Positions 728-13,082 of a DNA stretch of 64,000 nt are shown here, piece by piece (position 1 is the first letter of the stretch; the number at the start of each line of letters is the position of its first letter). Source of the DNA: an uncultured bacterium (GTDB taxonomy: Bacteria; Spirochaetota; Leptospiria; Leptospirales; Leptonemataceae). The stretch lies in NCBI GenBank assembly GCA_937928085.1, contig CALFVU010000014.1, positions 62,001 to 126,000 on the forward strand. Reading direction: 5' to 3'. The position numbers were made by a program, and so were the translations under genes. The notes under the pieces are model-generated. The model worked only from the letters and a program-made list of their open reading frames with translations. It ran no database searches and had not been told where the DNA came from.

Positions 728-771
728 AGATTTGACTTTGATTCAAAACAAAATTGATTTATTCTAGCTTT

Positions 772-1296
772 ATGGATTTCAATAGCATTATTATAATTTC
801 TCAAATCATAACTGTATTTTTCGGATTTCTTGACGTGATTATCCATCTAAATACAAGAATTAATAATGTATATCTTTTCGTAAAAAAACAGTTCGAAAAT
901 CTTGAACAAAGATTTGAAACAATTCAACAAAGACTAGACAAAATCGAACAACGATTCGATCAAATCGAACAAAAATTAGACATCACCGAACAAAAATCTG
1001 ATAAAACCGAAGAAAAACTTGAAAGAATAGATCAAAAATTAGAAAAAGCAGACCAAAAACTCGAAAAAAATGATCAAAGGATAAGTGAAATAGAAAAATA
1101 TTTCGATATCAAAATTAAAGAACTAAGGCATGAAATCTTTCAATATATTTATGAATTAAAAGACGTAATAAAGAATTTAAGAATAGAAATCTATAAACAA
1201 CTGGTTGACATCAAAATTAAGATCCAAACATTGAACCAAGATATTAAAGATATTTTAAAAATACTAGCAAAAGAAGAATTGAAAAAAATAATATGA
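772..1296 (+). CDS. Membrane-anchored heptad-repeat coiled-coil protein
   Basis: I do not recognise a named family. The first 30 residues contain one hydrophobic segment, probably an N-terminal membrane anchor. Nine consecutive seven-residue units of the type QRFDQIE/QKLEKAD follow, a textbook parallel coiled coil, and then a less regular helical C-terminus rich in Lys, Ile and Glu. ATG at 772 is preferred over the TTG at 754; neither has a clear Shine-Dalgarno. The stop codon overlaps the start of the YihY-type gene in an ATGA arrangement, so the two are almost certainly co-translated and may work together at the membrane. A scaffold or tether role is only an inference from shape. Confidence 0.75.
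   Translation: MDFNSIIIISQIITVFFGFLDVIIHLNTRINNVYLFVKKQFENLEQRFETIQQRLDKIEQRFDQIEQKLDITEQKSDKTEEKLERIDQKLEKADQKLEKNDQRISEIEKYFDIKIKELRHEIFQYIYELKDVIKNLRIEIYKQLVDIKIKIQTLNQDIKDILKILAKEELKKII
907..1095 (+). repeat. Nine tandem 21-bp units encoding coiled-coil heptads
   Basis: Nine degenerate 21-base units lie in frame, each encoding one heptad that mostly begins Gln-Lys or Gln-Arg with a hydrophobic residue at the third position. The units differ mainly at synonymous or conservative positions. They look like an old tandem expansion now held by selection on the coiled coil. Confidence 0.75.
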
Positions 1297-3161
1297 ATTT
1301 ACTAATTAAATTTATAAATCTTATTTATACTGCTTTTCTTAACTTTACAAAAGATAAAATGATTACAAAATCAAATTCGATTGCATATTCGATTGTGATT
1401 GCAATTATTCCTTTATTGACTGTTTTAATTCGAATAGCAAATCTCAATCAAAGAGAATTAATTGAATATATAACTCGATTTTTTGCTATTTACGGAATCA
1501 CAGGTGTTCAACCTGTTTTAGATATTATTCAAGACATTTTAAGTAGAGCAAATACAATTAGTGGCATAGGATTTTTATTTTTAATTTATGCAATTTTAAA
1601 AATTTTTCAAGATTTAGAAGAAATTGCAAATCAAGTTTTTGAAGTAGAATCTCGAGGATTTTTAATTCGAACTTCTGTTTATACAAGTTGGATGATATTT
1701 TTACCCATTATTATTCTATTTATGATAGATTTTTCTAGGAAAGTTGAGGATTTCTTAAAACCACCCGATTACATTGAAATAAAAAAAAATAACAAAAACT
1801 TCTTTTTATTAAGAGAAGACATGTTGATTGAAATCTATAATTCTAACTTCGAAAAAGAAGCCTTGATTGATTTTCTTACGAAAGTAGATTTTTTATCTTT
1901 AAACAGAAAAATAATTATCAATCAAGAGCCTTTGGATTTTGATCTTACGGGAAATGCAGTAAAAACATTTTTAAAAAAACCTAAAAGAATTGAAGTTTCT
2001 AAAGATTTTATTGTGATTGTTTGCGAACCATCGTTTATAATTTTTAGTCTGGATAGTGGAATTAGCTGGGATTTTCGCTATTTTGTTTTTTCCAACAAAG
2101 GTAAGTCTTTTGAATTACCTACAATCGAAGATATTCATGTTGTAAATGACAATTTATTGGTTCTTTTAAGTTTTTCTAATCAAACTTATTTTTTTATATT
2201 AGATAAAGAATATTTAGATATAAAAAATCGGTATGTATTTGATAGTTTTTATAATAAAATTTATTTCTACGAAAATAAAATTTTTCTTTCTGGACAAGGC
2301 AGCCTTTTATATTCAGAAATCAGCCCAATTAGTTGGAATCTAATCAATATTTCTAACTTAAATACTACTTTTGAAAATTTTTATCTTTTAAAAGATTTTT
2401 CTATTTTTTTATCTGCAACAAAAAGAATTCTTATCTACGAAAATGGAATCATACAATTCCCTAGTATAAAAATTAATCAACTCGAAAATATAAATAATTT
2501 TAAAATTTTCTCGAATAAAAATGGATTTATTTATGGAAAAAAAGAACTACGTTATACAATCAATGGAGGAAAAGAGTGGTTTGTAGTAAAAACGTTTGAT
2601 TTAGAAGGAAGAGAACAAAAAATAAATTTTACTATCCAAGACTTAATCGAAAGCAATACAAAAGATCATTTTATACTTATAGGCAAGAATCAAAGTATTT
2701 ATGGTTTACAACTTTATTCTATTTCTATAGATCCAAAAATCGATTTACCTATTGTAAAACTTAAACTAACACTCAAACAAGAAATCTCTAAAGCCAGAAA
2801 TTTACTTCCTTCTATAGTTACTTTAATACTCAATTATTTGTATATAGTAATCATACTCTTTTTCTTTTATATGATTCTACCGAATAAAAAAATACCTATT
2901 TTAGCAGCTTTCACTGGTGGGGTGATTAGTTCACTTGGAATTGTGTTATTTATAGTTTTGTTTAAACTTATTTTGCCTTTTTTTTCAAGTTCCCGTTTTG
3001 TATATGGAATTTGGTTTACTGTACCAATCGGGATGATGATTTTATTAACTACTATTCAAATTTTTTTATATGGATTAGAAATTGTAAAATTAGTTAGTAA
3101 TCCAGATCTAATACAAAAAAATGTCATTACAAATTTAGTTTCTAAAATAAAAAATCAATAA
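1293..3161 (+). CDS. YihY/BrkB-family inner-membrane protein with a large beta-propeller-like insertion
   Basis: Residues 1-150 and about 500-600 match the two halves of the YihY (BrkB, once called RNase BN) membrane family: the N-part has KSNSIAYSIVIAIIPLLTVL, and the C-part has hydrophobic helices with PNKKIPILAAFTGG. Ordinary members are about 280-420 residues; this one has 622. The extra material, roughly residues 155-495, is beta-rich and contains two Asp-box-like motifs (SLDSGISW near 252 and TINGGKEW near 422), as in BNR/sialidase-type propellers. It would sit in a loop between membrane helices, probably facing the periplasm. The function of YihY proteins is not settled. The gene begins by ATGA overlap with the coiled-coil gene. 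Confidence 0.8.
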   Translation: MNLLIKFINLIYTAFLNFTKDKMITKSNSIAYSIVIAIIPLLTVLIRIANLNQRELIEYITRFFAIYGITGVQPVLDIIQDILSRANTISGIGFLFLIYAILKIFQDLEEIANQVFEVESRGFLIRTSVYTSWMIFLPIIILFMIDFSRKVEDFLKPPDYIEIKKNNKNFFLLREDMLIEIYNSNFEKEALIDFLTKVDFLSLNRKIIINQEPLDFDLTGNAVKTFLKKPKRIEVSKDFIVIVCEPSFIIFSLDSGISWDFRYFVFSNKGKSFELPTIEDIHVVNDNLLVLLSFSNQTYFFILDKEYLDIKNRYVFDSFYNKIYFYENKIFLSGQGSLLYSEISPISWNLINISNLNTTFENFYLLKDFSIFLSATKRILIYENGIIQFPSIKINQLENINNFKIFSNKNGFIYGKKELRYTINGGKEWFVVKTFDLEGREQKINFTIQDLIESNTKDHFILIGKNQSIYGLQLYSISIDPKIDLPIVKLKLTLKQEISKARNLLPSIVTLILNYLYIVIILFFFYMILPNKKIPILAAFTGGVISSLGIVLFIVLFKLILPFFSSSRFVYGIWFTVPIGMMILLTTIQIFLYGLEIVKLVSNPDLIQKNVITNLVSKIKNQ

Positions 3162-3663: not shown

Positions 3664-6600
3664 ATGTATCAAAAATTATTAAAAAGTTTTACATATTTTT
3701 TTTCTATTTTTTGTTTATTTTATTATACTTTAATACCAACAGAAACAAAAGTAAAGGATTATTTAGGCAAAAGAATTGCTTCTATAAAAATCATTGGGCA
3801 TAAAAACGTCTCCGAATTTGATATTAGAAGTGTCTTACCTTTCAAAGAAGGTCAGATTCTAAAAGAAGAAAATCTAAATAGCGCTATTCAAAATCTTTAC
3901 AACACTGGCAATTTCGAAAACATTCAAATTTATGCAAAATTATTACAAAACAATCAATTGATAATTCATATTTTGGTTACAGAACTACCGAGAATTAAAG
4001 AAATCAAAATCTTAGGAGAAGAAGAATTATACGAAGCAGATTTAAAAATACTTCTTCCTTTTAAAGAAGGAGATGTTTTTAATGTACAAGATGTAAAAAA
4101 TGGAGTGGACATTTTAAAAAAAAAATATTTACAGGAGGGTTTCTTTTTAGTTGTCATCTGGGAAAATTATGAAGTTACTGAAGAAGGTGTTATAGTTAAA
4201 TATTTTATTGACGAGGGGAAAAACATACCCATTGCAAAAATTAACATTTATGGATTAAAAAACATAAATCCTAATGAAATCATAAATATTATGGAACAAA
4301 AAGAAGAGGGATTTTTCGAAGATGGAATTTTTCAAGAATCGAAATTCGAAGAAGATAAATTTAGAATCATAGCTTATGTAAAATCAAAAGGATACATTAA
4401 TGCTGAAATCGATCCAGAAGGAACTGGTTATGAAATACGATGGAGAAATCCAAAAAAAATAGAAGATGGTAGAGTCATAATTGTAAATTACAAAATCATA
4501 GAGGGTGAAATTCGATACTTTGGTGGATACTCTATTGAGCATGATCCAGATTACATCAATAAAGAGTTGAATCCACCAGAAAGAAAATATAAAGAAAAAA
4601 TTAGGCCTGTTTACGAAGCTGATTTTTTACTTTCTATGCTGGAATTTCAATTAGAAGATTCGGGAGAAATATTAGACGAAACTAAATTTTTTAGAGATAG
4701 GAACACTCTTCAACAAGCTTATGCAAGTCAAGGTTATGTATATGCACAAATTCAACCATATTTTACACAATTTGCCCTAAATCAAACAAATTTAGAAAAA
4801 TATAAAAAATGCAGAAATTTACAAAAAACTCAAAATGAAGAAGAAAAAAATTGTAAAAACATAGCAAAAAGTATAGATATAGAAAAATTAGAATCAATAT
4901 TAAAAAAAGATCCAAAAAAAGAAGGAATTATTTTAAGACATACTCACTTTGTAATTAGAGAAAATCATCGAGCTTATATAGAAAATATTATCATCAAGGG
5001 GATGAAAAAAACAGAAGAAAAAGTTATACGAAGAGAATTACTAATTAAAGAAGGACAGTTATTTAATTCCACACTAGTAGAAAAAAGTAGAGAAAGAATT
5101 TTTAATTTAGGATATTTTAAAGAAGTAAATTTAGAAATGAGGCCCGGTTCGGACGATAAAAAAATGAATCTTGTAATAAGTGTAGAAGAACAACCTACAG
5201 GTACAATTACAATGGGAGGTACCTATGGAACCCAGTCTGGATTTTCTGTTTTTACAGAGATTGGAGAAAATAACCTATTAGGAACAGGACAAAAAATTTC
5301 TGGAAAATTACAATATGGTCCTTTTGTTAGATCCATTAGTGTTTCTTGGACAGAACCCTGGTTTTATGAGGAATGTGCAGAGGTTTCGGGAAGATATTGG
5401 TTTTTAAAACAAAGAACCTTTGATGAATCTCCAGATCTAAAAACCTTAATTTATTTAGTCGAAGATTTTAAAAACGAGAATTTAGAATTAGCTACTTCTC
5501 TTGAATACATGATAAAAGAAGAATTAGAAACGAAGGATTTATCCAAAGTAAAAGAGCCCTCTATAGAAATTTTAGATAGAATCAAATGGAAAATTCGAAG
5601 AAAACTTTCTCGCTTTGTCTTAAAAGAAGAAAAATGTTATCGAAATATTCCTAAACCTTGGTCTTTATCCTTATATGGTGGTTATAATTCTCAGAAATTG
5701 GAAACGTCTGCTTTATTGATAAGCGATGACCCCAACGATTTAATAGAAAAAGCCACTTATGAGTATAATGCTTTTGGTTTAGGCATTGGAATTGGGCATT
5801 CTTTAGGATTACATTGGAGTCATTATCATAGATATTCTCCTTCGTGGTCTACAATATCTCGTCCCTCAGCTTTAGCAGATAATGTAATTATTCAAAGAGA
5901 AAATCTAGGTTGGCAATTCAAATCCAGTCTTACAAACGGAATCTCTTATACTTCGATTGATAACTACTTAAATCCAACTAGAGGTTCTATAATGGATTTC
6001 TCGATAGAAATAGTGGGACAGTTCTTAGGTGGAGATGATCATTTTAATCGATATAAAATTACTTTTTCCAACTATCAAAAATTAGGAGATTATACGTTTT
6101 GGGGTTTAATTCGAAATAATAAATTAACAAGATGGCCTATTACATTAGAAAGCAGGATCTCTTTAACTTTTACTCATGAAACTTCTCCATATAAAAAGAA
6201 ACAAAATAAAGAAACCAATCCCTATTTAGAAAGAAATGATAAATTATACTTAGGAGGTTATGAAACCATAAGGGGGTATGACTATAGCAACGATCGACAA
6301 TTTCCACAACCTTGGTTTCAGTTTGGTGGCTTAAATCATTTACTTTTAGGAAGTTTTGAATTACGATTTCCTATTGAACCTTCAACATTATTTTTTGTAT
6401 TCTTTTTAGATGCTGGTGGTGGTTATCTTAATTTAGGGGAGCTTACAAAAAAAGATAAAGATTATGTAGAAGCTTACGAAGAAAACACAAGAAAGATATT
6501 CGAAGGAAGAACTCTTTTAGAGATCTACATATCTGATAGATACGATTTAATTCGATTAACTCCTTATTTTTACAACTCAAGAGCAGATTGGAATAATCCA

Positions 6601-6804
6601 AATAAATATATCCTTTCAGAAAGAAACATAGCTTTAGACCGTCTTCTTTATTCTTTTGGTATTGGCTTAAGAGTACAAATACCAGTTTTACCTATTCGTC
6701 TTTTTTTAGCACAAAAACGCTATTATAAAAAAGGTCAAATTCTACCTATACCCGGCGACGAAAAATATAATTTTGTATTTGGTATAGGAGACTTTAGATT
6801 TTAA
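3664..6804 (+). CDS. bamA: Outer-membrane protein assembly factor BamA (Omp85)
   Basis: BamA inserts beta-barrel proteins into the outer membrane. The order is a hydrophobic export signal (about 1-25), then POTRA-type domains beginning IASIKIIGHKNVSEFDIR and recurring to about residue 510 (a late copy reads AYIENIIIKGMKKTEEKVIR), then the Omp85/D15 barrel to the C-terminus. The barrel holds the conserved GGYETIRGYD loop, the VRGF/Y motif placed inside the barrel lumen, and it ends in Phe as outer-membrane barrels do. At 1,046 residues it is longer than the roughly 800 of proteobacteria, with extra charged stretches near 375-430 and 590-660, but close to the spirochaetal size. It leads straight into msbA (1 nt gap). 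Confidence 0.95.
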   Translation: MYQKLLKSFTYFFSIFCLFYYTLIPTETKVKDYLGKRIASIKIIGHKNVSEFDIRSVLPFKEGQILKEENLNSAIQNLYNTGNFENIQIYAKLLQNNQLIIHILVTELPRIKEIKILGEEELYEADLKILLPFKEGDVFNVQDVKNGVDILKKKYLQEGFFLVVIWENYEVTEEGVIVKYFIDEGKNIPIAKINIYGLKNINPNEIINIMEQKEEGFFEDGIFQESKFEEDKFRIIAYVKSKGYINAEIDPEGTGYEIRWRNPKKIEDGRVIIVNYKIIEGEIRYFGGYSIEHDPDYINKELNPPERKYKEKIRPVYEADFLLSMLEFQLEDSGEILDETKFFRDRNTLQQAYASQGYVYAQIQPYFTQFALNQTNLEKYKKCRNLQKTQNEEEKNCKNIAKSIDIEKLESILKKDPKKEGIILRHTHFVIRENHRAYIENIIIKGMKKTEEKVIRRELLIKEGQLFNSTLVEKSRERIFNLGYFKEVNLEMRPGSDDKKMNLVISVEEQPTGTITMGGTYGTQSGFSVFTEIGENNLLGTGQKISGKLQYGPFVRSISVSWTEPWFYEECAEVSGRYWFLKQRTFDESPDLKTLIYLVEDFKNENLELATSLEYMIKEELETKDLSKVKEPSIEILDRIKWKIRRKLSRFVLKEEKCYRNIPKPWSLSLYGGYNSQKLETSALLISDDPNDLIEKATYEYNAFGLGIGIGHSLGLHWSHYHRYSPSWSTISRPSALADNVIIQRENLGWQFKSSLTNGISYTSIDNYLNPTRGSIMDFSIEIVGQFLGGDDHFNRYKITFSNYQKLGDYTFWGLIRNNKLTRWPITLESRISLTFTHETSPYKKKQNKETNPYLERNDKLYLGGYETIRGYDYSNDRQFPQPWFQFGGLNHLLLGSFELRFPIEPSTLFFVFFLDAGGGYLNLGELTKKDKDYVEAYEENTRKIFEGRTLLEIYISDRYDLIRLTPYFYNSRADWNNPNKYILSERNIALDRLLYSFGIGLRVQIPVLPIRLFLAQKRYYKKGQILPIPGDEKYNFVFGIGDFRF

Positions 6805-6805
6805 A

Positions 6806-8689
6806 ATGAATTCAAAAAAACCTTATATTTTTCATTTGTTGAAATACTTTCTAAAATATAAATACAGACTAATTTTGGGAACGTTTTTTGCTCTTATTGC
6901 ATCTTTATCTAATCTTATCTCTTTATCTTCATTCGTTCCTATTTTTAATGCTCTTGGTTCAGAAAAAAAAATTAAAGTATTGGAAATAGGAACAGAGGAA
7001 AATAAAATTTATAAAAAAGCTAAAGAAAATACAAATCTTGAATTCTACGAAAAACTTTATTTTCATTGGGTGAATATAAAAATTAAAATCAATGAATATT
7101 TTGAGCCTTATGATAACAAAGAAATCGTATATCGAATTATATTATTTATCATTCCCATCTATCTTATAAAAATTCTATCCATTACCTTATCTATTTTCTT
7201 TCTTGGTACGATGAGTTTTTATGCTACAAAAGATATCAGAGAAGACCTTTATAATCAGTTAAATCAGTTTGATATTTCTTTCTTCGAAAAAGAAAGAACA
7301 GGCTTTTTAGTATCAAGAATTATAAACGATGTGCACTTGATCTCTAAAACACTTTCTGTAGAAATACAAGAAGGAATTGTAAATATTTTTTATATTGTTA
7401 CTCATTTATTTGTTTTATTCATGATTTCGTGGAAAATGCTTTTTTTTATTCTCTTTGGTGTACCTATTCTTATGACTCCAGTAAATCGTTTCGCTTTAAA
7501 AGTAAAAAAAGCTGCAAGGAATCAACAAGAAAGATTAGCAGATTTATTATCTCATTTACAAGAAGTGATTTCTGGCGTTCGCGTTATAAGAGCATTCGCT
7601 ATGGAAACTTTCGAAGAAACAAGATTTAATCTAATCAACGAAAAACTATATAAAGATACTTTTAAAGGTCATTTTTATCATCAAGTAGGACCTGCCATTT
7701 CCGAAATTGTGATTACACTTATTTTTATTGTTTTTTTAATTTGGGGAGGATACGAAATTACAAAAGGAGAAATTACAAAAGGTCATTTCTTTGCTTTTTT
7801 CTTTATTCTTTTATTTATTATGAGGCCTATTATCCAAGTATCAGTAATCATAAATGTCTTGTCTATTGTGGGATTAGCAGCTGAAAGAATCTCAGAAATT
7901 TTACATAAACCGGAGAAGAAAAAATTAAACGAAGGAAAAATAATTTTTAAAACTCTAAATGATTCTATCCATTTTAAAAATGTTTACTTTAGCTACAAAG
8001 AATCCAAAAAAGATTATGTTTTAAATAATATTGACATAAAAATCAAAAAAAATCAAATGATAGCTTTAGTTGGAGAATCTGGCAGTGGTAAATCTACTCT
8101 GATAGACTTACTTTTAGGTTTTTATAAACCTACTAAAGGAAAAATCATAATTGATTCGATTAATTTAGATGACTATCAAATCGATTCAATTCGAAAAAAA
8201 ATAGGGGTTGTTCCACAAAATGTTTTTCTATTTAATGCAACGATCCGAGAAAATATTACACTTTTTGATTCCTCTATTCCTGAAGAAAAAATCATAGAAG
8301 TTTGTAAACTTTCTTATGCTTATGATTTCATAAAATTACTTCCTAATGGATTCGATACAGAAATTGGGGAAAGAGGAATTATGTTATCAGGTGGTCAAAA
8401 ACAAAGAATAGCTATTGCAAGAGCATTAATTCACGATCCAGATATTTTGATTTTTGATGAAGCAACCAGCGCATTAGACAATGAAAGTGAAAAAATTTTA
8501 GAAAAAGCAATTCAATCAGTAATAAAAAATAAAACTGTAATTATGATAGCCCATAGACTTAGAACTATTTATAAAGCCGAAATGATTTATGTGATTCAAA
8601 ACGGAAAAATTGTAGAGAAAGGTACTCATCAAGAATTACTTGCCAGAGGAAAAGTTTATAAAAAATTATATGAATTACAATTCTCCTAA
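6806..8689 (+). CDS. msbA: MsbA-like ABC exporter (lipid A flippase type), TM plus ATPase
   Basis: A half-size ABC exporter with six predicted helices in residues 1-365 and an ATPase domain after about 390. The nucleotide-binding signature is complete: Walker A GESGSGKST at 423-431, LSGGQ at 527-531, Walker B ending in Asp551-Glu552, and a switch His in MIAHRLRT. The family flips lipid A core or other lipids across the inner membrane. Placement between bamA and lpxK supports the lipid A role, although a general lipid or drug exporter cannot be excluded from sequence alone. An extra charged segment at about 50-90 interrupts the first helices. Confidence 0.88.
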   Translation: MNSKKPYIFHLLKYFLKYKYRLILGTFFALIASLSNLISLSSFVPIFNALGSEKKIKVLEIGTEENKIYKKAKENTNLEFYEKLYFHWVNIKIKINEYFEPYDNKEIVYRIILFIIPIYLIKILSITLSIFFLGTMSFYATKDIREDLYNQLNQFDISFFEKERTGFLVSRIINDVHLISKTLSVEIQEGIVNIFYIVTHLFVLFMISWKMLFFILFGVPILMTPVNRFALKVKKAARNQQERLADLLSHLQEVISGVRVIRAFAMETFEETRFNLINEKLYKDTFKGHFYHQVGPAISEIVITLIFIVFLIWGGYEITKGEITKGHFFAFFFILLFIMRPIIQVSVIINVLSIVGLAAERISEILHKPEKKKLNEGKIIFKTLNDSIHFKNVYFSYKESKKDYVLNNIDIKIKKNQMIALVGESGSGKSTLIDLLLGFYKPTKGKIIIDSINLDDYQIDSIRKKIGVVPQNVFLFNATIRENITLFDSSIPEEKIIEVCKLSYAYDFIKLLPNGFDTEIGERGIMLSGGQKQRIAIARALIHDPDILIFDEATSALDNESEKILEKAIQSVIKNKTVIMIAHRLRTIYKAEMIYVIQNGKIVEKGTHQELLARGKVYKKLYELQFS

Positions 8690-9683
8690 TCAATTGTCTT
8701 TTTTAGAAAAAATTTATTTCAATATACACCAAATCGTTTATAATTATCGCTTATCAAAACAATTTATTTTTGATGATAAAATCATTCTATCGATAGGTAA
8801 TTTATCTACGGGGGGAACAGGCAAAACTCCGTTATGTATTTTTTTGGGAGAATATTTTCTTAAAAAAAAACATAATGTTTTAATTTGCTTAAGAGGATAC
8901 AAAGGAAATTTTAAAGATTATTTATTAGTCAGCGAAAATGGTAAAATTCTAACTACTCCTTACCTTTCCGGAGACGAAGCATATTTGATTGCTTATAAAC
9001 TAATTAAAAAAAATTATAAAAATTTTAAAGTAGTATGTGGAAAGAATAGAAAAGAATTGATTACACGTTTTGGAAATGACTGTGATATTATATTGTTAGA
9101 CGATGGTTTTCAGAATCCTTCTGTTTTTAAAAACATAGAAATAACTCTAATCGATACAAATGATGATCCTTTACAAATTAAGCTTTTACCTTTAGGGACA
9201 TACAGAGAACCTATTAGTGCTTTAGAAAGAAGTGATATCATTTTATTGACAAGAGCTAAAGAAAATCCCGAAAATTTACAAAAATGGAAATCGATTTTAG
9301 ATGCATTAGACTATAAATATTTTTTTTCAAATCATAGATTTATCCAATTCGAACCAGAACTTCATAAAAAAGAAATCATTGCAATATGTGGCATTGGAAA
9401 TCCACATTCTTTTTTTCGTATTTTAGAAGAAAAAAAGTTTCAGATTGTTAAAAAATTTATTTATAAAGATCATTATTCTTATACAAATTTAGACATTCAA
9501 AAATGGATACAATATCAATTGCCCATCGTCCTAACAGAAAAAGATTGGGTTCGAATTTTATATAATTCTATTTTTTTACAAAATAGACATTTGTTTTATA
9601 GATTAGAAATTGAATTAGAAATTACTAATCAAAAACGATTTTTTAGTCTAATTCAAAGAAAAATTCGTGATTTTAGAAAATAA
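8670..9683 (+). CDS. lpxK: Tetraacyldisaccharide 4'-kinase (LpxK)
   Basis: LpxK phosphorylates the 4' position of the lipid A disaccharide precursor at the inner face of the membrane. The family's Walker A variant, GNLSTGGTGKTPL, lies at residues 43-55, followed by LICLRGYKG, DVIILLDDGFQ-type Walker B residues (ILLDDGFQN), and LLPLGTYREP, all typical of LpxK. Length, about 337 residues, is normal. ATG at 8670 overlaps the end of msbA by 20 nt; a TTG at 8640 would overlap by 50 nt and is less likely. The order bamA-msbA-lpxK groups outer-membrane assembly and lipid A functions in one probable operon. Confidence 0.93.
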   Translation: MNYNSPNQLSFLEKIYFNIHQIVYNYRLSKQFIFDDKIILSIGNLSTGGTGKTPLCIFLGEYFLKKKHNVLICLRGYKGNFKDYLLVSENGKILTTPYLSGDEAYLIAYKLIKKNYKNFKVVCGKNRKELITRFGNDCDIILLDDGFQNPSVFKNIEITLIDTNDDPLQIKLLPLGTYREPISALERSDIILLTRAKENPENLQKWKSILDALDYKYFFSNHRFIQFEPELHKKEIIAICGIGNPHSFFRILEEKKFQIVKKFIYKDHYSYTNLDIQKWIQYQLPIVLTEKDWVRILYNSIFLQNRHLFYRLEIELEITNQKRFFSLIQRKIRDFRK

Positions 9684-9726: not shown

Positions 9727-10854
9727 TTATTTATGATTTTTAACTAGAATTTTTAAAATTTCTGGAAAACAACTTACTGATAAATGGCTTGCATCATAAA
9801 AATCATTACAAGAAATAATATCTTGATTCAAATCTAAAACGGAAAATTGATATTTTTTTGCAATGCTTTGTATAGAATTTTGTACAAGCTGAATTTCTTT
9901 AGAATCTTGATAAATTTTTCTTAAATAAGGATTCACTCTGGGAAAATAAAGAATAGCTTTAGTTTGATTTGTTTTGATTTTTTCTAATAAAAAATCAAAA
10001 AATATGAATTGTTCATAAGAAATAGTAAAATTTTTTATATAAAAGTTATATAAAGCTTCTGTTTCTTTTTTTAAATCTTTGTCTGACATTTTACCAAACC
10101 AGGCATATTGTGCTCCTTGAGTATAATGTAAAAGCATCCTTTGGGGAGATTTATAGTAATTATAAAAACTTAAATTTTCTTCATAAAAACTATACAATAT
10201 CTGAAATATTTTTTTTTCCTCTTCAGAAAGTAAATGATACTCAAGATTGTATTTTTTTAGGTAATTTTGTAAGTTTTCTGAAAAAAATGAACCTTTAATT
10301 CGTTTTAATAGAGTTTTAAAACTAAATTGTAGTCCTAAAAGAGCATAAATTTTTGATTTTTGATACGTTTCTAAATCTTTTTTAGGAATTAAATGATAAT
10401 ATTCTTTAATGAAGTTTTCATCAACACCAAAGATAAGTACAGGAGAGCCAAAAATACCGGTATTTCGATTAAAAGCATCGGGAGAAACACCAATATAAAA
10501 ATATTGTGGTTTAGAGAAGTCTAAAATTTTTGATGCTATATAGTAATAATAAGCAGGAACCGCTTGTGGTCCAGAAAAATTCCATATCGATAAATCATTA
10601 TAATTCAAATATTTCGCAATCTCCATCCCTAAACCAAAGCTTCGGGAATCACCCAAAACAATAATTAATTTTATTTGCTCTTGTCTTGTTTTTTCGAATT
10701 CTTTTAAGATTTCTAGCTGTTCTTTTCTTTGCCTATAATATAACATACCACCCGGTTGTATAAAATGATCTCGAACAACATCTAACAAAAAAATTTTATC
10801 CACTAAAAAAAGAAAAAGAAATAAAGATGGATATAAGAATAAATGAAACTTCAT
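9727..10854 (-). CDS. DUF1574-type SGNH-hydrolase-like protein, partner of AlgI-like acyltransferase
   Basis: A 375-residue protein with an N-terminal hydrophobic signal anchor (about 5-25) and an exported domain. It carries VLGDSRSFG near residue 70, resembling the Ser block of SGNH hydrolases, and DASHLS near the C-terminus, the Asp-x-x-His block. This matches the DUF1574 group described from Leptospira and, in layout, the AlgJ/AlgX-like partners of MBOAT acyltransferases. It starts 9 nt after the AlgI-like gene stop, so the pair probably moves acyl groups onto a surface glycan: the MBOAT carries them across the membrane, and this protein transfers or removes them outside. The substrate is unknown. 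Confidence 0.78.
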   Translation of the reverse strand: MKFHLFLYPSLFLFLFLVDKIFLLDVVRDHFIQPGGMLYYRQRKEQLEILKEFEKTRQEQIKLIIVLGDSRSFGLGMEIAKYLNYNDLSIWNFSGPQAVPAYYYYIASKILDFSKPQYFYIGVSPDAFNRNTGIFGSPVLIFGVDENFIKEYYHLIPKKDLETYQKSKIYALLGLQFSFKTLLKRIKGSFFSENLQNYLKKYNLEYHLLSEEEKKIFQILYSFYEENLSFYNYYKSPQRMLLHYTQGAQYAWFGKMSDKDLKKETEALYNFYIKNFTISYEQFIFFDFLLEKIKTNQTKAILYFPRVNPYLRKIYQDSKEIQLVQNSIQSIAKKYQFSVLDLNQDIISCNDFYDASHLSVSCFPEILKILVKNHK

Positions 10855-10863
10855 ACCAATTCC

Positions 10864-12288
10864 CTAAAATTGAAAATAAAAAAAATCTTTTGCTTCAGTA
10901 GAAAACTCAATTAAAGAAAAAACTATCAAGAAAAACACAAGCATTTGTAAAACAAATTCATACTTTTTAAATCGTTTTAATTTCTCGGGATATTGCTCTA
11001 TAAAATTAAAAAACATAACAAATACAAAACTATAAAAAATTATTTCTAAATTTGCAAAAACTGTAAATTGAAAATCAAAAAAGATCATTTTTTTTAACAG
11101 TTGTATAGCTCTTGAAATATCTCTAACAAAAAAGAATAAACTGGAAATTAACATAAAATACCATGTAATGATAATTCTTAAAATTCTTTTAAAAATATGT
11201 TGAGGCCATTCTTGATATCCCCTTTTAAATATAAAAGCCTCAAAAGAAAGGATCACCCCTACGAAAACTCCCCAAATGATGAAATTATAACTTGCCCCAT
11301 GCCACAAACCACCTAAAAAAAAAGTAATGATTAAATTAAAGTAGTTTCTTAATTCGGGAACTTTACTACCACCTAAAGGTATATAGATATAATCACGTAT
11401 CCACATAGAGAAAGTTAAATGCCATCTTCTCCAAAAATCAGATACAGAATGCATAAAAAAAGGAGCTTTAAAATTAATAGGTATTTCAAAACCTAAAAAA
11501 TATCCACAACCTTTTGCTATGTCTGAATAAGCTGAAAAATCACAATACAACATCATTAAATTAGCAAAAACATAAATCCAAATTTCGAATGAGCTTAACG
11601 TTTCAACAGGTTGATAAAATATAGGCGAGACCACATTACTTAATGTATCCGCGATCAATAATTTTTTAAAAACCCCTATTAAAATGTACCAGAAACCTTC
11701 TTGTAAGGTTTTAAAGTTCGGTATATTTTTTGATTCTATATTCTGAATCTGAGGTAATAGATTCTCAGACCTCATAATAGGGCCTGCTATTAGTTGGGGA
11801 AAAAATAAAATAAAAAGTAATACTTCTTTAAAGCTATGCTTGCCCTTATACCTTCCAGAATAAACATCATAAGAATAAGACATTATCTGAAACGTATAAA
11901 AACTTATACCTAAAGGTAGAAATATTTCTAATCCGTATATGCTTAAACTTTCTCTTAAATTCGATTCTAACCAATTCTGATTTTTAAAAAGAATTCCTAG
12001 AAAATCCCAGAAAAGATAAAAATACTTAAAAATTGCTATATTCAAAATATCTATAGATAAAAGAAAAATCAATATCCATTTTTTTTTATAAATTTTCCAT
12101 AATTCCATTCCATAATAGTTAATTGCAACTACCAAAATCAAATGAAAGATAAAAGGGATGCTCCACGTACCATAAAAATATAAACTACTTAGAAATAAAA
12201 CTGAAAATCTAAACTTTCTGGGAACATTCCAAAATAATAAAAAAACAATTATAAAAAAGACTAAATAATGAGATGTAACAAACAACAT
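10864..12288 (-). CDS. MBOAT acyltransferase, AlgI/DltB-like
   Basis: A multispanning membrane-bound O-acyltransferase of about 474 residues. Family marks are the FPQLIAGPIMR loop, the SDFWRRWHLTFSMWIRDYIY segment, YIPLGGSKVP, and GGLWHGASYNFIIWG with the catalytic His. AlgI-type proteins pass acetyl groups to extracytoplasmic polysaccharide; DltB-type act on teichoic acids, which this cell should lack. ATG at 12288 lies 2 nt after the stop of the pseudouridine synthase gene; a TTG at 12306 would overlap it. It is followed at once by the DUF1574-type partner gene. Confidence 0.9.
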   Translation of the reverse strand: MLFVTSHYLVFFIIVFLLFWNVPRKFRFSVLFLSSLYFYGTWSIPFIFHLILVVAINYYGMELWKIYKKKWILIFLLSIDILNIAIFKYFYLFWDFLGILFKNQNWLESNLRESLSIYGLEIFLPLGISFYTFQIMSYSYDVYSGRYKGKHSFKEVLLFILFFPQLIAGPIMRSENLLPQIQNIESKNIPNFKTLQEGFWYILIGVFKKLLIADTLSNVVSPIFYQPVETLSSFEIWIYVFANLMMLYCDFSAYSDIAKGCGYFLGFEIPINFKAPFFMHSVSDFWRRWHLTFSMWIRDYIYIPLGGSKVPELRNYFNLIITFFLGGLWHGASYNFIIWGVFVGVILSFEAFIFKRGYQEWPQHIFKRILRIIITWYFMLISSLFFFVRDISRAIQLLKKMIFFDFQFTVFANLEIIFYSFVFVMFFNFIEQYPEKLKRFKKYEFVLQMLVFFLIVFSLIEFSTEAKDFFYFQF

Positions 12289-12290
12289 AA

Positions 12291-13082
12291 TTAAGAATCT
12301 TTCCAAACTAAAGAAGGATCAAATTCTTTATATTCTCCTTCGGGGATAATAAATTCTTCCAAACTAAAATTTCCAATAGCATATCGATATAAATCTATCA
12401 CCTCGTAAAGCAAAGCATTGAACATTCTTCTTATGTGTCGCTTTTTTCCTTCCATTAATACAACTTCATAAATGTTATTTTTTGCATCCTTTGTTTGTAT
12501 AGAAATTGCTCTTAATCTTTCTCCGTTTTCTATTACTCCCTTCCCAGTCAAGAGATTAAAATCATATAAAGTTAAAGAATCATCTAGTTGAACATAATAT
12601 TTTTTTAAAACTTTGTATTTTGGTTGGGTAAGATGATATAAAAAAATACCATCAGACGATAAGATAACAAGTCCTCTTGAATTTTTATCTAATCTCCCTG
12701 CATATCCTAAATGATATTGTTTTTTGATATTTTCTGGAATCAGATCATAAACAAGCTTTTCTTTAGAGTTAAATCGTTTTTTCGAAACTAAATATTCTTT
12801 TGGCTTATTTACAGCTATATATATATGATTTGCAATAGGACGTATTCTTTTTCCGTCTAAAATTACTAAATCTGTTTTTTTTACCTTATAACTTAAATCC
12901 TTAATAGGAACACCATTTATCAAAACCTTACCTTGTAAAATATATTCTTCTACTTCTCTTCTGGAACCGATACCACAAAGTGATAAATATTTATTAATAC
13001 GAACTTCTCCTAACGGATAAGCGTGATAATTTTGATTTTGAAATAATTGCAGTTTCTTTTTTATATCGTCTTTAGAATTCAT
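12291..13082 (-). CDS. RsuA/RluB-family rRNA pseudouridine synthase
   Basis: The protein has an N-terminal S4 RNA-binding domain (about residues 25-85: RINKYLSLCGIGSRREVEEY) and a catalytic domain in which GRLDKNSRGLVILSSDG contains the Asp that attacks uridine. The C-terminal EGKKRHIRRMFNAL is the usual RsuA/RluB/RluE motif. Whether it modifies 16S (RsuA) or 23S rRNA (RluB) cannot be decided here. It is the first gene of a three-gene minus-strand run with the AlgI-like and DUF1574 genes, an arrangement that is probably transcriptional convenience. Confidence 0.9.
   Translation of the reverse strand: MNSKDDIKKKLQLFQNQNYHAYPLGEVRINKYLSLCGIGSRREVEEYILQGKVLINGVPIKDLSYKVKKTDLVILDGKRIRPIANHIYIAVNKPKEYLVSKKRFNSKEKLVYDLIPENIKKQYHLGYAGRLDKNSRGLVILSSDGIFLYHLTQPKYKVLKKYYVQLDDSLTLYDFNLLTGKGVIENGERLRAISIQTKDAKNNIYEVVLMEGKKRHIRRMFNALLYEVIDLYRYAIGNFSLEEFIIPEGEYKEFDPSLVWKDS

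What the first reader, a model, noticed from the sequence alone, without database searches (positions are those of the whole stretch)
1293..3161. YihY-family membrane protein split by a propeller-like domain
Seen: the two halves of a YihY/BrkB protein are separated by about 340 residues of beta-rich sequence with two Asp-box-like motifs (SLDSGISW, TINGGKEW). Known: ordinary YihY proteins are short and of unsettled function. Inference: the insertion is a periplasmic sensing or binding propeller, which would give a first clue to what this family does in this lineage.
Basis: partly seen in the sequence, partly recalled or inferred. Interest (0 to 1): 0.6.

Follow-up and report, generated by a model that had tools for sequence, protein, structure and literature searches.

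The report
YihY membrane protein carrying periplasmic beta-propeller
A common bacterial membrane protein of unsettled job (YihY/BrkB) has, across much of the spirochaete phylum, a seven-bladed propeller domain of the kind used to help assemble photosystem II built into its middle, where it should hang outside the inner membrane and can be used to work out what the family does.

Summary
Window 1293-3161 encodes one 622-residue BrkB/YihY (PF03631) protein whose two membrane halves (residues 12-158 and 498-605) flank about 340 residues. AlphaFold2 and Foldseek make that stretch a beta-propeller, by strand count seven-bladed; its nearest relatives by sequence profile are Ycf48/HCF136. It is not a fusion artefact. 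57 propeller-bearing proteins from 12 families of Spirochaetota carry a 313-381 residue insertion at the same junction, where ordinary YihY proteins have 2-42 residues. A tree of the membrane parts needs one gain and one loss; the loss is a clean in-frame deletion in one genome (G143). No propeller-bearing match was found in samples of three other phyla. Charge bias puts the propeller in the periplasm. The BrkB core residues are intact, so the core activity is probably unchanged, while propeller conservation is mostly structural (Asp boxes, Gly, Trp). The best clue to the core is E. coli YhjD (PF03631), reported to bind LPS and to co-purify with LptB. My reading: a lipid-handling membrane module with a periplasmic docking propeller. 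In family f1 a discoidin-like protein, encoded directly upstream at 12 loci and unlinked in the window's genus, is a candidate partner. A sensing role is not shown. New variant of a known kind.

The parts
1293..3161 (+). Whole gene: 622-aa BrkB/YihY protein with inserted propeller
   Evidence: ORF; PF03631 E 4.5e-25
1326..1766 (+). N-terminal membrane half (residues 12-158; TM1-TM3)
   Evidence: PF03631 20-145; helices 23-48, 86-116, 123-155 in the model; HMM boundary
1767..2783 (+). Inserted Ycf48-type beta-propeller (residues 159-497), predicted periplasmic
   Evidence: All-beta in the model, Foldseek propellers, Ycf48/HCF136 by profile, charge bias
2046..2069 (+). Asp box 1, SLDSGISW (residues 252-259)
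   Evidence: G256 98% and W259 85% conserved in 57 homologues
2313..2336 (+). Degenerate Asp box, SEISPISW (residues 341-348)
   Evidence: Canonical in relatives, e.g. SPDGGESW
2556..2579 (+). Asp box 2, TINGGKEW (residues 422-429)
   Evidence: W429 96% conserved
2784..3107 (+). C-terminal membrane half (residues 498-605; TM4-TM6)
   Evidence: Family model on 503-604; helices 500-528, 536-564, 572-602
754..1296 (+). Upstream 180-aa coiled-coil ORF; its TGA overlaps the ATG of the YihY gene (ATGA), so the two may be co-translated
   Evidence: only sub-threshold, coiled-coil-type Pfam hits; not found as a neighbour in relatives

Best explanation
It is a BrkB/YihY inner-membrane protein in which a Ycf48-type seven-bladed propeller has been built into the periplasmic loop between TM3 and TM4. 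The six-helix core keeps the family's conserved residues and most likely keeps the family's activity, which I take to be handling of envelope lipid precursors (LPS-like). The propeller is a stiff periplasmic docking platform over that core: it would bind an envelope partner protein and so couple the core to periplasmic machinery, much as Ycf48 docks on the lumenal face of D1. In the window's family the best candidate partner is a discoidin-like, single-helix-anchored protein encoded directly upstream in many relatives. SHOWN: the insertion, its fold (by prediction), one common junction, a tree with one gain and one loss, the intact core motif. INFERRED: periplasmic side (charge rule), lipid handling (from YhjD), protein docking (from Ycf48, from the structural type of conservation and from the neighbour).
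For: BrkB in both halves and in 27/27 relatives. Fold: models with pLDDT 79 and 75; Foldseek hits are propellers, with YCF48 5ojp_C at TM 0.63 (target-normalised) for the window protein and Ycf48 8am5_S as top hit (TM 0.69) for a relative; profile search best hits Ycf48 8.6e-21 and HCF136 6.3e-14. Same junction in all, 313-381 aa against 2-42 in standard members; tree of 81 rows with 2 label changes, 42 of 78 inner branches well supported. Core residues shared with E. coli YihY and outgroups: Y32, P40, N113, R121, P138, P530, G542, Y571-G572, P578, G594, E596. Charge bias: K+R 26% in the TM2-3 loop and 16% in TM4-5, against 9% in TM1-2 and 6% at the propeller entry. Propeller less conserved than core (1.37 against 2.21 bits), and its conserved positions are mostly Asp-box, Gly and Trp. 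G143 lost the propeller cleanly and keeps a full core with no stand-alone propeller match. Discoidin-like gene upstream on the same strand in 12 f1 locus entries and present in all four genomes of the window's genus. YhjD is PF03631; reported to bind rough LPS, co-purify with LptB and interact genetically with lptBCFG (PMC3219608).
Against: I found no experiment on any propeller-bearing member. YhjD is a distant paralogue (its own NCBI model hits only 12 of 27 relatives, best 8.6e-6), so its role may not transfer. In the window's genus the discoidin-like gene is unlinked, and no partner gene is conserved beside the YihY gene across clades; the MsbA/LpxK/BamA neighbourhood of the window is not kept even within the genus. 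The loss in G143 says the propeller is not needed for core function in every lineage.
Confidence: 0.42

Rival explanations
1. Periplasmic sensor: the propeller binds a ligand and signals through the membrane core to a cytoplasmic output, originally the winged-helix-like tail found in most relatives.
For: Most propeller-bearing relatives carry a C-terminal tail beyond TM6 (lengths 742-856 aa in most families) that looks like a winged helix; related BrkB proteins hit Rrf2 there. Foldseek also returns the propeller sensor domains of hybrid two-component systems for a relative (BT4663, BT4673).
Against: The tail is lost in the window's genus and in much of its family (617-687 aa) while the propeller stays. 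The tail also occurs on YihY proteins without a propeller (409-497 aa), so the two are not co-inherited as input and output.
Confidence: 0.22
2. Glycan-binding or glycan-processing propeller: it recognises peptidoglycan, LPS sugar or exopolysaccharide, as GH74 xyloglucanase propellers do.
For: After Ycf48, the next PDB profile hits are GH74-type xyloglucanases (4.1e-9 and weaker); 11 of 27 members hit a glycosylhydrolase-type NCBI propeller model (best 6.2e-13).
Against: Hits cover part of the propeller and follow shared Asp boxes; no invariant acidic pair stands out in the propeller (positions at 80% or more are Gly, Trp, Asp-box Asp, P158 at the entry and D199). GH74 enzymes use two propellers (own knowledge), here there is one.
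Confidence: 0.15
3. Passive scaffold or dimerisation domain: the propeller only spaces or oligomerises the YihY core and binds no specific partner.
For: Lower conservation than the core, mostly structural; dispensable in G143.
Against: Kept in 57 of 58 members of its clade across 12 families since one gain, which suggests a selected role.
Confidence: 0.13
4. Chance or artefact: a mis-assembled or fused pair of genes.
For: Genomes are mostly draft assemblies from metagenomes.
Against: Same junction in dozens of independent genomes, including ones with very few contigs (G008, G032).
Confidence: 0.01

Closest known systems
BrkB/YihY family (PF03631), e.g. E. coli YihY and YhjD
   Same: Six-helix core, order of the halves, conserved motif residues
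   Different: 340-residue propeller between TM3 and TM4; score below the NCBI YihY subfamily cut-off (66.2 against 73.15)
Ycf48 / HCF136 photosystem II assembly factor
   Same: Seven-bladed Asp-box propeller; nearest by sequence and, for a relative, by fold; Ycf48 docks on the lumenal side of a membrane protein (PMC10403576)
   Different: Part of a membrane protein chain, not a free lipoprotein; no conserved Arg in the propeller of 57 homologues where Ycf48 has its Arg patch; a bacterial group not known for photosystem II
YihY with winged-helix tail (PRK04214, ribonuclease BN/unknown domain fusion)
   Same: Same core; most propeller-bearing relatives keep a tail, and 27/27 hit this model
   Different: No propeller in PRK04214; the window's genus has lost the tail
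BamB
   Same: Periplasmic propeller docking on an envelope machine; among Foldseek hits
   Different: Eight-bladed lipoprotein of another propeller type (own knowledge); low identity (7-12%)

Membership tests
BrkB/YihY (PF03631) | Profile match over the Pfam gathering score | tested here: met
   89.2 against 33.7 bits, two stretches
BrkB/YihY (PF03631) | Conserved core residues (Y32, P40, N113, R121, P138, P530, G542, P578, G594) | tested here: met
   Shared with E. coli YihY and outgroups, and near invariant in 57 homologues
NCBI YihY subfamily TIGR00765 | Score over the curated cut-off | tested here: not met
   66.2 against 73.15 bits; the insertion and divergence lower it, so I file it under PF03631 only
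BrkB/YihY (PF03631) | N-in/C-in topology | tested here: inconclusive
   Charge rule agrees; no experiment
Ycf48/HCF136 | Seven-bladed Asp-box propeller fold | tested here: met
   Models and Foldseek, PDB profile 8.6e-21; blade count read from the strand pattern
Ycf48/HCF136 | Arg patch that binds D1 | tested here: not met
   No Arg in the propeller reaches 80% across 57 homologues; repeats make residue-level alignment to Ycf48 ambiguous
Ycf48/HCF136 | Separate lumenal/periplasmic protein | tested here: not met
   Inside a membrane protein in all 57
YhjD-like LPS handling | LPS binding, LptB association | not testable with these tools
   Published for E. coli YhjD only (PMC3219608)
YihY-winged-helix fusion (PRK04214) | Cytoplasmic winged-helix tail | tested here: not met
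   Chain ends at residue 622, shortly after TM6; many relatives have about 130-150 more residues

The most novel reading that the evidence does not exclude
A phylum-wide envelope protein of spirochaetes in which a Ycf48-type assembly-factor propeller has become a built-in periplasmic docking domain of a lipid-handling BrkB module, with a discoidin-like partner in the window's family; solving its partner would give the first mechanism for the BrkB/YihY family.
Probability: 0.3. Interest if true: 0.75.

Novelty: new variant of a known kind. Interest (0 to 1): 0.5.

Why it matters
BrkB/YihY proteins occur in many bacterial groups (10 of 14 control genomes), yet their function is unsettled, and no PDB sequence matched the membrane core in my search. 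A lineage in which the family carries a large, soluble, expressible periplasmic domain gives a direct handle: the propeller can be purified and used as bait. The natural deletion in G143 shows the two parts are separable. It also takes the Ycf48 propeller, best known from photosystem II assembly, into a membrane protein of spirochaetes.

Tried and rejected
Fusion or assembly artefact: rejected, same junction in 57 homologues. Propeller as a separate gene in relatives: not found; G057 (488 aa) and G143 (468 aa) simply lack it. Window neighbourhood (BamA/MsbA/LpxK) as functional clue: rejected, not conserved even in the genus. Cross-clade operon partner: none. YhjD suppressor site: I recall an R134C change in YhjD (own knowledge; one search found no paper); it aligns with R85 here, but that position is Asn or Ser in many members, so I draw nothing from it. 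Profile A1 was too diverse for the contig scan; A2 was used instead. Literature: no paper in the library that I could find links YihY/BrkB with a propeller, and none holds YihY or BrkB together with Leptospira.

Full report
WHAT IS THERE. The finding is correct in its facts. ORF 1293-3161 (+) is a single uninterrupted 622-residue frame starting with ATG. Pfam finds BrkB/YihY (PF03631, 89.2 bits, cut-off 33.7) in two stretches, the best at residues 20-145; a related NCBI model puts the other half at 503-604. With models of the two halves, the N part ends at 158 and the C part starts at 499, leaving 340 residues. The two Asp-box-like motifs are at 252-259 and 422-429; 100 shuffles of the protein give 0.03 such motifs on average.

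THE INSERTION IS A PROPELLER. Alone, the window protein is below threshold for any propeller family (YCF48 11.8 against 27 bits). Among 27 relatives, however, 19 hit PSII_BNR/YCF48 (best 3.5e-26) and 13 hit BNR. AlphaFold2 on the window protein with 10 relatives gives pLDDT 78.8 and a beta-rich stretch from 160 to 496 between two helical parts. I read seven blades from the strand list (160-193, 229-268, 277-316, 320-352, 359-388, 400-435, 447-479 plus 486-496); the blade count is my reading, not a program output. Foldseek finds propellers throughout (686 matches at E <= 0.001, including YCF48 and BamB). A second model, of the relative L035, has Ycf48 8am5_S as top hit at target TM 0.69. A profile of the family against PDB sequences gives Ycf48 (8.6e-21), HCF136 (6.3e-14), then GH74-type xyloglucanases. 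No PDB sequence matched the membrane part.

WHERE IT OCCURS. The nearest named records are metagenome-assembled genomes labelled Leptospiraceae (KatS3mg129, SKW199), and wider relatives are labelled Leptospirales, Spirochaetales and Spirochaetia; the window's genus is an uncultured member of that group. In a sample of the phylum, 207 of 296 genomes have a PF03631 match. Propeller-bearing proteins turned up in families f1-f5, f12, f23, f31, f35, f39, f41 and f46. They match the family profile over nearly its whole length at about 1e-140 even in the most distant families. With the same profile and a bar of 1e-40, 299 genomes of the phylum of a Methylococcaceae genome and 198 of that of a Bacteroidales genome gave nothing; 198 of that of a Desulfuromonadales genome gave one match, a 486-residue protein without propeller. 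Only these three phyla were sampled, and an unrelated insertion at the same place would have been missed, so 'spirochaete-specific' is a working statement.

HISTORY. A tree of the membrane parts only (81 rows, IQ-TREE) needs two label changes: one gain of the propeller on the branch to 58 rows, and one loss. The loss is G143 (L097, 468 aa), which sits inside a 100/100 clade with three propeller-bearing relatives, keeps the core and the tail, and joins the TM3 and TM4 flanks in frame. Some genomes carry a standard paralogue beside the propeller form (e.g. G164, G085, G139, G147). In the window's own genome the only PF03631 matches counted are two, as expected for the two halves of this gene (genome 92% complete).

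TOPOLOGY AND CONSERVATION. In 57 homologues K+R make up 26% of the TM2-TM3 loop and 16% of the TM4-TM5 loop, against 9% of TM1-TM2 and 6% at the propeller entry. That is N-in, C-in, with the propeller on the periplasmic side; the TM5-TM6 loop (9%) and the propeller exit (17%) do not discriminate well, so this is inference. The core keeps the family's conserved residues, shared with E. coli YihY and outgroups. Mean information is 2.21 bits in both halves and 1.37 in the propeller. Propeller positions conserved at 80% or more are Gly, Trp and Asp of Asp boxes plus D199; none is Arg. Asp boxes number 5-7 in most of the distant families and fall to 2 in the window's genus, which is why Pfam no longer sees them there. 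Within the genus the propeller is still clearly conserved (45-53% identity to the window protein, against 57-65% in the halves).

NEIGHBOURS. The window's neighbours (SpoIIE-type phosphatase, coiled-coil, DUF2784, BamA, MsbA, LpxK) are not kept, except DUF2784 downstream on the other strand in the four genus members. In the wider family f1 a gene on the same strand directly upstream is shared by 12 locus entries (some are the same genome seen twice). It encodes a short protein with an N-terminal hydrophobic stretch and a discoidin-like F5/8C domain (PF25302, 1.3e-6 in L033; alignment). The window's genome and its three genus relatives keep it elsewhere, next to another gene. No partner is shared across the whole propeller-bearing clade.

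HOW IT MAY WORK. For the core the best published clue is E. coli YhjD, which I confirmed as PF03631. It was reported to share genetic interactions with lptBCFG, to co-purify with LptB and to bind rough LPS, with lipid A precursors accumulating in the deletion (PMC3219608); a paper title also places YhjD substitutions beside MsbA ones in rescuing Kdo-depleted cells (reference list of PMC4404585). For the propeller the best analogue is Ycf48, which docks on the lumenal face of a membrane protein (PMC10403576). Joining the two: a lipid-handling membrane module with a periplasmic docking propeller. Steps shown are the architecture, fold prediction, single junction and tree; lipid handling, docking and the partner are inferred. 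The sensor reading stays possible, but the cytoplasmic tail that could carry an output is lost in this genus while the propeller is kept, and it also occurs in proteins without a propeller.

VERDICT. Real, old, conserved and, in the papers I could search, unreported. It is a new domain arrangement of two known families, not a new kind of system. Interest 0.5: modest surprise, but a practical handle on an orphan family.

Noticed in passing
L107, L108 (family f14 of the same phylum): YihY proteins there have a different insertion, about 125-150 residues, in the TM5-TM6 loop, with no Pfam hit; an independent enlargement of the other periplasmic loop.
   Followed up: partly
L098 / G143:C6 (468 aa): Clean natural loss of the propeller with an intact core and tail.
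   Followed up: yes
G000:C19:32602-33240 (L141:5543-6250): Discoidin-like single-anchor protein, upstream neighbour of the YihY-propeller gene in many f1 relatives but unlinked here, beside a Nudix-like gene.
   Followed up: partly
window 3664-9683: BamA-type Omp85, MsbA-type ABC transporter and LpxK in a row; an outer-membrane building cluster, not conserved beside this gene.
   Followed up: partly
window 9727-12306 (-): DUF1574 protein next to an MBOAT acyltransferase, as in cell-surface O-acetylation pairs.
   Followed up: no
window 754-1296: Coiled-coil protein with many heptad-like E-Q/D-Q repeats; its stop overlaps the next start (ATGA).
   Followed up: no
L057 (G026:C60): Propeller-bearing gene broken into two overlapping frames (327 and 412 aa), an apparent frameshift or assembly error in a draft genome.
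   Followed up: no
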